In this document: in pieces, positions 21,048 to 25,278 of the stretch
Numbering within the stretch: position 1 is the stretch's first letter
Layout of the letters: every line of letters begins with the position of its first letter
NCBI RefSeq assembly: GCF_000264995.1
Contig: NW_006767440.1
Coordinates: 1,345,863 to 1,409,862, forward strand
Reading direction: 5' to 3'
DNA length: 64,000 nucleotides
DNA from: Punctularia strigosozonata HHB-11173 SS5
Taxonomy: Eukaryota; Basidiomycota; Agaricomycetes; Corticiales; Punctulariaceae
Notes under the pieces: model-generated
Databases searched by the model: none
The model's input: only the letters and a program-made list of their open reading frames with translations
What the model was told of the DNA's origin: nothing
Position numbers and translations under genes: made by a program

Positions 21048-22040
21048 ATGGCCGAAGGCAGCAACTACGATTACCTCTTCAAGGTCTGCTCTGTCGCATG
21101 ATGGGGCTCAGCATGGCTCAACGCAACCCACTGTAGATTGTGCTCATTGGTGACTCGGGTGTCGGAAAATCGTGCGTGGCTCATGCCTATCGTTGTTATT
21201 TACGTCGTACTTACGGTGCTTTCGCCGTGACTCAGTAACCGTGGGTCCGGGCAATCCGTTGGAAGCAGGGTACACTGACAACGTCGAGCAGTACTCTCGC
21301 GGTTCACGCGGAATGAGTTCAACCTCGAGTCGAAGTCCACCATAGGCGTCGAGTTTGCGACGAGGTCGATAAATGTCGACGGCAAGACGATCAAGGCGCA
21401 GATATGGGATACTGGTACGTCAGCCCGGTCCTATATGCACGTTGTGGTAATTAGCGACCGAATAACGACACTCGACTTATCCAGCTGGTCAAGAACGCTA
21501 TCGTGCCATTACCGCTGCATACTATCGCGGCGCTGTCGGTGCACTCCTGGTCTACGATATCACCAAGCATGGGTCGTACACGAACGTCACCCGATGGCTG
21601 AAAGAGCTTCGTGACCACGCAGATGCCAACATTGTCATCATGCTTGTCGGGAACAAGAGTGATTTGAAGCATCTGCGGGCCGTGCCCACCGATGAAGCCA
21701 AGGCATTCTCAAGTAAGCCATCCGACGTCCGATATGCATGGTTCATGTTGAGCAGACTTCCCTTCGTAGCGGAGAACGGCCTGTCATTCATAGAGACGTC
21801 GGCGCTGGACGCCACGAACGTCGAATCAGCCTTCCAAACAACCCTCACTGGTACGTCCGCCCATTTTTTGATAGTTTCCAGTCACATTCAACGTCCCCTC
21901 GTGAAGATATCTATCGTATAGTTTCCAGGCAAACTCTGGAGCAAAACGCTGACCCCATCAAGCCGCCCACTGGAGACACTCGTACAATCAACCCGAGCGT
22001 GGATAACAGTGCCAGCGCTCCGAGCGGGAAGTGCTGTTAG
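21048..22040 (+). CDS. Rab11/Ypt31-type small GTPase, copy 1
   Basis: Seven exons, 21048-21083, 21137-21171, 21236-21240, 21292-21414, 21485-21712, 21770-21850 and 21907-22040, give 213 residues. Rab11 GTPases direct exit from the late Golgi and recycling endosomes. Motifs: P-loop [16 protein letters not shown], effector loop with [28 protein letters not shown] and FIETSALD. The protein ends GKCC, a double-cysteine prenylation site. The P-loop is assembled across a 5-nt exon (TAACC) that completes the Ser-Asn-Leu codons. Without it the frame fails. Exon sizes are identical to those of copy 2, with which it converges. The protein looks fully functional. Its N-terminus ([15 protein letters not shown]) is typical of the family. 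Confidence 0.93.
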
Positions 22041-22630
22041 GCGCTTGACATCTCACTCTACATCTGGTCTCGTGCTGTTGGGTTACCGGACACACAATAC
22101 ATGCTGGCATACGCCACGCCACTATAGAACATCGTAGAGCAAGGGAGCGTGTTTACATGCACTCGCGTGTGCTATGCAATTTGTTGGGTGGCTATCTACA
22201 CCATTGCTGGGCCAGTTTACATAGGCATTGGCGGGAAGGATTTCTACAGGGTCGTTTGTCAGAGGGATCATGCTCATGTTTGCTAGCGTACCAGCAGTGT
22301 ACTATGGATCCTACGTCCAGTTCACCAGCGTATATTCGTTCCGATTCGAGAAAGGCGTCGTGATACCCTGCTACATGTTGTTGAGCCCCATCATCGATGT
22401 CGATGCTGTGTAAATGCCACCGCGCACGTCGTCCGACAGCACAAGATTACCACAACAAGCTATTATTCCCAGTAGAAAACAACCACACATCGGAGCCTAG
22501 AGTATACACAGGGGTGCACGAAGACATAAACCAGAAGGAGAATGGCGCGACCAACGTCAAGTTAGCCAACGCGAAGTGAGCGGCTCCCGAAACTACTTTG
22601 CGGAAGCCATACGAGGTGGATGGTGGTCGC
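22041..22630. other. convergent spacer between Rab copies 1 and 2
   Basis: No gene was recognised. Short hydrophobic frames exist on both strands but lack motifs or splice support. Confidence 0.5.
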
Positions 22631-23753
22631 TTAGCAGCACTTGCCTCCCTGGGCATTGGCGCTGTTGTCCACACTCGGGCTGACGGTGAGCGTGTCACCA
22701 GTGGGCGGCTTGATGGGGTCCGCAGACTGCTCGAGCGACTTGCTAGAGACGATCCGATAGATGTCTATGAAGATATCAGCACCACTTGCGATGCGTAGAT
22801 GTGCACGATGATGGTACGAACCCGTCAAAATTGTCTGGAAGGCTGATTCGACGTTCGACGCGTCTAGCGCTGACGTCTCAATGAAAGACAGTCCGTTCTC
22901 CGCTGAGGATTGTAGTCAGTATAATTTTCTCGCATCAGTTGTGCCTAGTGGGAGATTCACTAGAGAATGTCTTCGCCTCCTCCGTAGGTACAGCCCGCAA
23001 GTGCTTCAAATCGCTCTTGTTACCAACCAGCATGATCACGATGTTCGAGTCTGCATGGTCGCGGAGCTCCTTCAACCACCGAGTAACGTTCACGTAGGTT
23101 GCGTGCTTCGCGATGTCGTACACAAGGAGGGCACCGACAGCCCCGCGGTAGTACGCAGAGGTGATAGCACGGTAGCGTTCTTGGCCGGCTGATATCGGGG
23201 AAGAAGCAGTAAATCAGCGCCAGGTTGGTCAGTCATGGAGAAGAACTGGGCAGCGCAATCAATGACTATGGAGACTTCGGGAGTGTTTGCGCACGCACGA
23301 GCCCAGGGGCCAGGGGGGCGAAGTTCGGGAGAAGTGGGGTACAAGATCTGCCTATATTGCAGAATCAAACTCACCGGTATCCCAAATTTGGGCCTTCACA
23401 GTCTTTCCATCCACATTTATTGACCGCGTTGCGAATTCAACGCCTATGGTGGACTTCGACTCGAGGTTGAACTCGTTACGTGTGAACCGCGAGAGCACTG
23501 ATGCCGACCCCAAAAGTCTGCATTCAGTCCTTTTGTGTGGTAAGGTCATACATACGGTTACTAGCGGATCACGAGGGTATCAGAACATGGGGTACAAGGG
23601 ACAACGAAGCGGCACGCGTACGATTTCCCGACGCCAGAGTCTCCAATCAGCACAACCTGCGCAATACGCAAGCTCAGTGCCCGCTCCAGCAACGACCTTG
23701 CGCTCAATCAGACCAACCTTGAAGAGATAGTCATAGTTGCTGCCCTCGGCCAT
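22631..23753 (-). CDS. Rab11/Ypt31-type small GTPase, copy 2
   Basis: Exons 23753-23718, 23656-23622, 23560-23556, 23497-23375, 23188-22961, 22902-22822 and 22764-22631 give 213 residues. Every exon has the same length as in copy 1 (36, 35, 5, 123, 228, 81 and 134 nt), while the introns differ in sequence and length. Motifs: [72 protein letters not shown], and the end GGKCC. Differences from copy 1 are few in the G domain and lie mostly in the tail ([11 protein letters not shown]). It is an intact recent paralogue in inverted orientation, with the pair tail to tail. It may be redundant with copy 1 or differ in expression. Confidence 0.93.
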
Positions 23754-24358
23754 TGCGCAGTTCTAAGAAATTGAAGATATATAATCGAGAAAGTCGTTCG
23801 TGAACGTCGTCAGTGCGGAGGAGTGGAGAGCGGTGTCGGGCGGACTTCGAAATTGGCTGAGCGAGTCTTGCTCTGCGCGATCACCACCGCCCCATCCATG
23901 TCTCACGTTGATCAAATGCACCGCGTTATTTGGCATCGGACACCGTGCTGGTCGTAATATGTTCGAGCTTGTAACCGGGCTTCCCGACATGCAATCACAG
24001 TCTTGGAAGTATAGATCCTGATGCCCATGCATCGTCGCTTGTGACGTTCCGCTGTTCACTGCCAACCTTGCTTTCGCACTGAATCATGTTTCCTTACTGA
24101 AAAACCATCAATGCTGACCGTTGAAATCATTCCTGCCACGGATTGATTTGCTTGGGAACCTTACCGATCTGCTCTACTGCGGAGCGCTGCATTTGGATCG
24201 CTCCCGCAGCGAGCCCGATGACTGATGGAGATGAAGTGTATAGCTACAAAGCGTTGGGTCCCCGATGTTCTTGAACCAGCTCTTGAATCGCTCCAGGCCG
24301 ACACGTTACTACGCTCTCGGCTCGTTCTTGACGCAGCATCGCGGCTGCCTCCTGAAGC
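23754..24358. other. divergent spacer between Rab copies 2 and 3
   Basis: Holds the promoters of both copies. No gene was recognised. Confidence 0.5.
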
Positions 24359-25278
24359 ATGGCATATCTCGACACCTACCACATCAAGGTCGTCGTAATT
24401 GGCGATTCCGGCGTTGGCAAATCGTACGTGCCGAATTCTGCGGTGTAACCCCCTTCCGCTGATGACCTTTGATTTTCAGGAATTGTGCGTGACATCACGT
24501 CGAGGTTCTTGTCTGGAGTCTGAGACTACCGCCGGGCAGTGATCAAGCGACTGACTCGCAACACATTCGATCATGATTCTTTAACCACCATCGGGGTGGA
24601 CTTTGGCACTTGGAAGATCGACGTTGACGGGACAACTATTCAAGCCACCTTGTGGGACACGGGTGCCGTTTCCAGTATTGCCGCCCCCGAGTTTGTGATA
24701 CTCATGATTGTTCATGATCAGCGGGCCAGGAGCGCTATCGCTCCATCACATCGGCATACTACCGCGGAGCGGTCGGTGTGGTTATTGTGTACGATACCAC
24801 TCGTTACGAAACCTTCAGGGATGTCAAGGGATGGCTCGAAGAGCTACGCGTGCATATAGACCCGACAGCAGTTATCATGCTCATCGGCAATAAGAGCGAT
24901 TTGGTCCATACAAGGGCTGTGTCTACTGAAGAAGCCCAAGCGTTCGCAAGCAAGTTTTTCATGTTCCATTGATGCCAACGATATTGATAGCATATGTTTA
25001 CATTCATCCAGAGGATAACAGCCTACTGTTTCTCGAAACATCGGCGTTGAACTCTACAAACGTTGAGAACGCCTTCAGGACTATGTTGACTGGTAAGGAC
25101 TTCCATGGCTGAATATGGAATTGCTTTATTCATAACTGTGTGTTCAGAAATATCTCATAAATATACATCCCGTAGGCTGGAGGTGTCGACGTATGCTGCT
25201 GGTCCCTCGGCAGGCAAGAGCCTTGACTGGACAATGACGAAACATATTGCATCGGACAAACGTGGAAGGTGCTGCTAA
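24359..25278 (+). CDS. Rab11-like small GTPase, diverged copy 3
   Basis: Exons 24359-24423, 24480-24484, 24540-24662, 24722-24949, 25012-25092 and 25148-25278 give 210 residues. The first intron of copies 1 and 2 is absent, but the 5-nt exon (here GAATT) and the exon lengths 123, 228 and 81 are kept. Motifs: [73 protein letters not shown], and a C-terminal RCC for prenylation. The effector region (FGTWKI instead of FATRSI) and the tail are strongly changed, so partner specificity has probably shifted. Intron 24950-25011 uses a GC donor (A|GCAAGT), required for FAKDNSLL. No break was found. It is a diverged paralogue under at least partial constraint. Confidence 0.85.

What the first reader, a model, noticed from the sequence alone, without database searches (positions are those of the whole stretch)
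21236..24484. A 5-nt microexon inside the P-loop coding region is kept in three Rab11 paralogues
At 21236-21240 (TAACC), 23556-23560 on the minus strand (TAACC) and 24480-24484 (GAATT) a 5-nt exon flanked by AG and GT restores the Ser-Asn-Leu codons of GKSNL. Without it no frame joins GVGKS to the next exon. All three copies show it, with unrelated intron sequences, so it is ancestral to the duplications. Exons this small are hard for the spliceosome to define, and automated annotation will almost surely miss them and mispredict these genes.
Basis: seen in the sequence. Interest (0 to 1): 0.85.

Follow-up and report, generated by a model that had tools for sequence, protein, structure and literature searches.

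The report
Five-base exon in fungal Rab11 genes
Three neighbouring copies of a fungal membrane-traffic gene each appear to carry a coding exon only five bases long in the part that encodes the GTP-binding loop, a real but already known kind of gene feature that gene-finding software easily misses.

Summary
All three coordinates are right. With the 5-nt exon, three complete Rab11-type proteins (213, 213, 210 aa) are read with uninterrupted [10 protein letters not shown]. The 5 nt supply the wobble base of the P-loop Ser, all of Asn and the first base of Leu. An SNL-restoring AG|N5|GT arises in 0.25-0.34% of shuffles per gene. TAACC and GAATT differ at 3 of 5 bases without changing a residue. 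Flanking introns (51-64 nt) are essentially unrelated between copies, synonymous sites are saturated or nearly so, and intron positions match, so the exon predates the duplications. Three eukaryotic relatives of unidentified species have the stretch uninterrupted. One claim is too strong: other in-frame joins exist, but 0 of 95 restores GKSNL. No transcripts and no relative identified as a basidiomycete could be examined. Exons this small and smaller are published in plants and fungi, so this is a new member of a known kind. Most likely it is a constitutive exon spliced by intron definition, one short intron at a time. Interest is moderate.

The parts
21048..22040 (+). g1, Rab11-type gene, 7 exons: 21048-21083, 21137-21171, 21236-21240, 21292-21414, 21485-21712, 21770-21850, 21907-22040; 213 aa ending GKCC
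   Evidence: spliced model without internal stop; best PDB match human Rab-11A, E 7.1e-101; Pfam Ras E 5e-64
21236..21240 (+). 5-nt microexon TAACC of g1
21172..21235 (+). g1 intron 2, 64 nt, gtgcgt..cag, upstream of the microexon
21241..21291 (+). g1 intron 3, 51 nt, gtgggt..cag, downstream of the microexon; CTGAC branch-like motif 13 nt from its end
22631..23753 (-). g2, Rab11-type gene, 7 exons: 23753-23718, 23656-23622, 23560-23556, 23497-23375, 23188-22961, 22902-22822, 22764-22631; 213 aa, 90% identical to g1
23556..23560 (-). 5-nt microexon TAACC of g2
23561..23621 (-). g2 intron 2, 61 nt, gtacgc..tag
23498..23555 (-). g2 intron 3, 58 nt, gtatgt..cag
24359..25278 (+). g3, diverged Rab11-type gene, 6 exons: 24359-24423, 24480-24484, 24540-24662, 24722-24949, 25012-25092, 25148-25278; 210 aa ending GRCC; intron 1 absent
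   Evidence: best PDB match Rab-11B, E 1.3e-66; 55% identical to g1
24480..24484 (+). 5-nt microexon GAATT of g3
24424..24479 (+). g3 intron 1, 56 nt, gtacgt..cag
24485..24539 (+). g3 intron 2, 55 nt, gtgcgt..cag

Best explanation
Each of the three Rab11-type genes contains a constitutive 5-nt coding exon between two ordinary short spliceosomal introns that lie 5 nt apart in the P-loop region. The exon supplies the third base of the P-loop Ser codon, the Asn codon and the first base of the Leu codon. It is most likely included because each flanking intron of 51-64 nt is recognised as a unit (intron definition) through a good GTRNGT-like donor, so the exon itself need not be recognised. U1 on the downstream donor and the 3' splice-site factors of the upstream intron would have to share 5 nt, so the two introns are probably removed one after the other, in either order, with the same product. 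Shown here: the anatomy, the codon logic, the conservation and the donor scores. Inferred: intron definition, the sequential order and constitutive inclusion. The exon arose once, before the duplications, most simply by two intron gains 5 nt apart in an uninterrupted ancestor (inferred).
For: Rab11 proteins with intact GKSNL only with the exon included (0 of 95 single-intron joins contains GKSNL). Skipping it gives a stop after 31, 30 and 33 residues in the three genes. Low chance of an SNL-restoring AG|N5|GT. 3 of 270 triple-substitution neighbours of TAACC still encode SNL, and GAATT is one of them. g1 and g2 introns no more alike than shuffles: z -1.93 to 0.45, 6 of 6. Sequence identity of g1 and g2 falls at the exon edges: 20-27 of 30 bases on the exon side of the long exons against 2-11 of 25 on the intron side, and 5 of 5 in the microexon. 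Exon lengths 5/123/228/81 equal in all three genes. The donors of the microexon-flanking introns match GTRNGT fully in 5 of 6 cases, against 3 of 11 for the other introns, Fisher two-sided p 0.0498, and each scores above at least 98.4% of 189 decoy GTs. Intron definition inferred for fungi including basidiomycetes: PMC2397502 (passages).
Against: No RNA evidence was available. The acceptors are all YAG but weak by a small PWM: for the acceptor just before the microexon, 57%, 79% and 13% of 150 decoy AGs score as high in g1, g2 and g3, and for the acceptor after it 20%, 51% and 45%. That PWM rests on 11 introns from the same three genes. The donor contrast is marginal, and in the first PWM, which included exonic bases, 4-27% of decoy GTs scored as high as these donors. 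A complete CTRAY motif is found in 3 of 6 microexon-flanking introns (3 of the 11 others). Of ten comparisons of g1 or g2 introns with g3 introns, two reached z 2.03 and 2.79; the first is the intron upstream of the microexon (g2 against g3), so a trace of shared intron sequence is not fully excluded. In g1 a single GC-AG intron would give GKSLLSRF, one residue short, and another GKSSVLSRF, of full length.
Confidence: 0.9

Rival explanations
1. There is no microexon: a single longer intron with other donor or acceptor sites gives an in-frame protein with an altered P-loop.
For: In-frame, stop-free single-intron joins exist in all three genes (32, 43 and 20 with GT, GC or AT donors; 18, 14 and 6 with GT donors). 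In g1 a GC-AG intron gives GKSLLSRF (one residue lost) or GKSSVLSRF (two changes); in g2 a GC-AG intron gives GKSYALLSRF.
Against: 0 of 95 joins contains GKSNL, the residues seen in the three human Rab11A chains whose alignments were shown. With GT donors the nearest proteins are 6, 6 and 4 changes away, the GC donors concerned (GCGTGG, GCCGCT) do not resemble the GTRNGT-like donors used elsewhere in these genes (the one GC donor modelled is GCAAGT), and the alternatives differ from copy to copy, whereas the microexon solution is the same in all three and gives equal exon lengths.
Confidence: 0.05
2. The copies, above all g3, are decaying pseudogenes and the 5 nt is a remnant that is no longer spliced.
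For: g3 is 55% identical to g1, lacks intron 1 and has one GC-AG intron.
Against: All three reading frames are complete, with CC ends. g1-g2 dN 0.055 against dS 1.60; g1-g3 dN 0.26 with dS saturated. [18 protein letters not shown] and ETSA are intact in g3.
Confidence: 0.04
3. The microexon is a regulated poison switch: skipping gives an early stop and lowers Rab11 output under some condition.
For: Skipping gives a stop after 31, 30 and 33 residues in the three genes.
Against: Any skipped 5-nt exon shifts the frame, so an early stop is expected without selection. Fungi and protists show few cassette exons (average fraction 3%, PMC2397502, passages). The three intron-exon-intron stretches fold no better than shuffles (z -0.01, 1.77, 0.78). 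Regulatory motifs were not searched for.
Confidence: 0.08

Closest known systems
1-nt exon of CYP621A P450 genes in Fusarium (PMC12940212; parts 1 and 2 of 3 read)
   Same: Fungal; ultra-small exon inside a conserved motif, required for the frame and mis-modelled by annotation. Inferred first from frame and alignment.
   Different: 1 nt against 5 nt, P450 against Rab GTPase. That exon has RNA read support; this one has none here. The origin proposed there (loss of a base, then adoption of a cryptic exon) fits poorly here, because the 5 nt encode exactly the expected residues.
Plant microexons of 15 nt or less, including 1-nt exons of APC11 and VPS55 and a 5-nt exon in rice (PMC8831610, search listing and passages; PMC4674806, abstract, introduction and start of results)
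   Same: Tiny exons conserved over long times, missing from annotations; lost again in gene copies that lost their introns (APC11).
   Different: Other kingdom and other genes; validated by RNA-seq and RT-PCR. In VPS55 of flowering plants only one of the two gene clades has the exon, whereas here all three copies have it.
Small exons of P450 genes in Phanerochaete chrysosporium (PMC1184071, search listing and passages)
   Different: The shortest exon given is 6 bp; P450 genes; said to be spread genome-wide over families.
Switch-like microexon of Xlr2 in Trichoderma virens (PMC11121469, search listing and passages)
   Same: Fungal microexon.
   Different: Alternatively included and regulatory; here there is no evidence of regulation, and none could be sought in RNA data.

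Membership tests
Rab11 / Ypt31-type GTPases | Closest relatives are Rab11 rather than other Rabs | tested here: met
   g1: all 33 PDB sequences at E up to 1e-60 are named Rab11, Rab25, RABA1a, YPT31/32 or 'likely rab family'. g3: Rab11 chains best (E 1.3e-66), before YPT1 and Rab1 (3.7e-50 and weaker); 60 of 104 matches shown. g2 was not searched by itself; it is 90% identical to g1
Rab11 / Ypt31-type GTPases | GTP-binding motifs and C-terminal cysteines for prenylation | tested here: met
   [22 protein letters not shown] and CC ends in 3 of 3 proteins; the motif roles are recalled
Rab11 / Ypt31-type GTPases | Function in recycling or late-Golgi traffic | not testable with these tools
   no cell data
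Microexon | Internal exon of 30 nt or less with GT-AG introns on both sides | tested here: met
   5 nt, six GT-AG introns of 51-64 nt
Microexon | Included in mature mRNA | not testable with these tools
   no transcript data held; inclusion inferred from frame and conserved residues
Conserved (evolutionarily kept) microexon | Present at the same codon phase in related genes | tested here: met
   codons 24 phase 2 and 26 phase 1 in 3 of 3 paralogues
Conserved (evolutionarily kept) microexon | Present in orthologues of other species | tested here: inconclusive
   0 of 3 eukaryotic relatives of unidentified species have it (L001, L002, L003); no orthologue identified as basidiomycete could be fetched
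Regulated (switch-like) microexon | Condition-dependent inclusion | not testable with these tools
   no RNA data

The most novel reading that the evidence does not exclude
The 5-nt exon is an old, clade-wide feature of Rab11 in a fungal lineage, and its inclusion is used as a gate: skipping truncates Rab11 just after the P-loop in all three copies, so a splicing change could lower recycling traffic in a coordinated way across the paralogues.
Probability: 0.06. Interest if true: 0.65.

Novelty: new member of a known kind. Interest (0 to 1): 0.35.

Why it matters
An exon of 5 nt in the GTP-binding loop of a trafficking GTPase, kept in three duplicated copies, is a clean natural test of how short-intron (intron-definition) spliceosomes cope with two sites 5 nt apart. 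It is also a practical warning: automatic models of these genes may well have wrong N-terminal parts, and the same fix could be tried for Rab11 in related fungi. It does not change ideas of what a spliceosome can do, since 1-nt exons are already reported.

Tried and rejected
The first splice-site matrix mixed in exonic bases, which are shared between homologous junctions, and made most microexon sites look weaker; it was rebuilt on intron bases only. Acceptors stayed unremarkable, and that is reported.

RNA folding of the three intron-exon-intron stretches gave no more structure than shuffles (z -0.01, 1.77, 0.78), so a structural bridge that loops the exon in was dropped.

A search for relatives gave three eukaryotic contigs: two among assemblies filed as archaeal or bacterial and one in the viral collection (a first viral scan found none). 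Their species are not identified. L002 is 92% identical to g1 over 110 core residues, but has introns of 36-38 nt and another intron pattern; I could not say whether it is a fungus.

Pseudogene and single-intron readings were considered and set aside. The rescue model of PMC12940212 (a lost base followed by a cryptic exon) was rejected as origin because the five bases encode exactly the expected residues.

Literature: ten searches. Among the titles and abstract beginnings listed I saw no report of a microexon in a fungal Rab11 gene; two searches returned no paper. Several lists were cut: 25 of 68, 9 of 11, 15 of 913, 5 of 1,618. The library holds open-licence papers only.

Full report
Observation. 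Reading the region directly and building spliced models gives three Rab11-type genes: g1 (+, 21048-22040), g2 (-, 23753-22631) and g3 (+, 24359-25278). In each, the P-loop exon ends in AAATC, the next long exon of 123 nt starts with TA, TG or TG, and joining these two ends directly shifts the frame. A 5-nt exon (TAACC, TAACC, GAATT) between AG and GT makes them fit and restores Ser-Asn-Leu. The spliced products are 213, 213 and 210 residues long and end in CC. g1 matches human Rab-11A best (E 7.1e-101) and g3 Rab-11B (E 1.3e-66); Pfam Ras matches g1 and g3 (g2 was not submitted, it is 90% identical to g1).

Chance. Frame alone proves little: candidates AG..GT of up to 40 nt number 8, 4 and 9 in the three gaps, and only one per gene reads SNL in frame with the next exon. 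In dinucleotide shuffles an SNL-restoring AG|N5|GT appears in 0.25%, 0.34% and 0.28% of 20,000 shuffles per gene. TAACC and GAATT differ at 3 of 5 positions, and only 3 of 270 possible triple changes of TAACC keep SNL. So the five bases behave as coding sequence.

The claim that no frame joins the exons is too strong. Enumeration of single introns with GT, GC or AT donors found 32, 43 and 20 in-frame joins without stop. 0 of the 95 contains GKSNL. The nearest in g1 are two GC-AG introns that give GKSLLSRF (one residue lost) and GKSSVLSRF (two changes); in g2 a GC-AG intron gives GKSYALLSRF; in g3 the nearest is four changes away. With GT donors the nearest are 6, 6 and 4 changes away. These near misses differ between the copies, and the closest ones in g1 and g2 use donors unlike those of the other introns, so I prefer the microexon, but only RNA can exclude them.

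Age. g1 and g2 have introns at codons 13 (phase 0), 24 (2), 26 (1), 67 (1), 143 (1) and 170 (1) of g1; g3 has all of these but the first. g1-g2 dS is 1.60 with dN 0.055; for g3 against g1 and g2 dS is saturated, with dN 0.26 and 0.27 over a 158-codon core. Introns of g1 and g2 are no more alike than shuffles (6 of 6, z -1.93 to 0.45); of the ten comparisons with g3 introns two stand out mildly, z 2.03 (g2 intron 2 against g3 intron 1, beside the microexon) and 2.79 (g2 intron 5 against g3 intron 4). Identity between g1 and g2 falls at exon edges, and inverted-repeat detection recovers exons 4, 6 and 7 as separate blocks with at most 15 nt of intron. The exon therefore most likely predates the duplications. 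Three eukaryotic relatives found in public assemblies, species unidentified, read the P-loop without interruption: GKSNLLSRF in L001 and L002 and GKSSLLLRF in L003, a more distant Rab. L002 shares the intron at codon 67 phase 1 and has an intron one base from that at codon 13. So the two introns around the microexon were either gained in the lineage of this fungus or lost elsewhere; three relatives cannot settle which.

Mechanism. Flanking introns are 51-64 nt, like the other introns of the genes (53-70 nt, one of 186). Fungi, basidiomycetes included, are inferred to recognise introns rather than exons (PMC2397502, passages), so exon size is less of an obstacle than in vertebrates (the latter recalled). 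Donors of the microexon-flanking introns match GTRNGT (consensus recalled, not from a call) fully in 5 of 6 cases against 3 of 11 for the other introns (two-sided p 0.0498). Acceptors are all YAG but otherwise weak, and complete CTRAY motifs (also recalled) occur in 3 of 6 of these introns. Because upstream acceptor and downstream donor lie 5 nt apart, I infer that the introns are removed in turn. Skipping would end translation after 30-33 residues, so inclusion must be efficient if the genes work. The stretches fold no better than shuffles.

Comparison. Very small exons are known: a 1-nt exon in Arabidopsis APC11 (PMC4674806, abstract, introduction and start of results), 1-nt and 5-nt exons in plants (PMC8831610, passages), a 1-nt exon in Fusarium P450s with read support (PMC12940212, parts 1 and 2 of 3), and a 6-bp exon in Phanerochaete P450s (PMC1184071, passages). 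The present case is another member. The host gene (Rab11) and the retention in three copies did not appear in what the ten searches listed, several of which were cut lists.

Verdict. Real, well supported by sequence, of moderate interest, and awaiting transcript evidence.

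Noticed in passing
window 24950-25011: Intron 4 of g3 begins with GC (gcaagt..cag), a GC-AG intron; the homologous introns of g1 and g2 begin with GT.
   Followed up: partly
window 24359-24423: g3 lacks the first intron, with exons 1 and 2 fused, and is diverged (55% identity to g1).
   Followed up: partly
window 23189-23374: Intron 4 of g2 is 186 nt long; all other introns of the three genes are 51-70 nt. Content not examined.
   Followed up: no
window 21048-25278: Three Rab11-type genes lie within 4.3 kb, g1 and g2 tail to tail; no further Rab11 copy in the 64-kb window by tblastn (weak extra hits only, best E 0.07).
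   Followed up: yes
window 7876-11144 (-): Open frames with EF3 HEAT and ABC transporter domains, an elongation factor 3-like gene, which suggests a fungus.
   Followed up: no
L001 837 onward; L002 3883-4516: Eukaryotic Rab11 genes on contigs filed under an archaeal (PBDU01000015.1) and a bacterial (JAIYDP010000111.1) genome assembly: probable contamination of those assemblies.
   Followed up: partly
L003 3001-4100: An IMG/VR 'viral' contig carries Rab-like genes; the second one seems to need TAA read as a residue (KL-TAA-LWDTAGQERF), as in ciliates: probably not a virus (read by eye).
   Followed up: no
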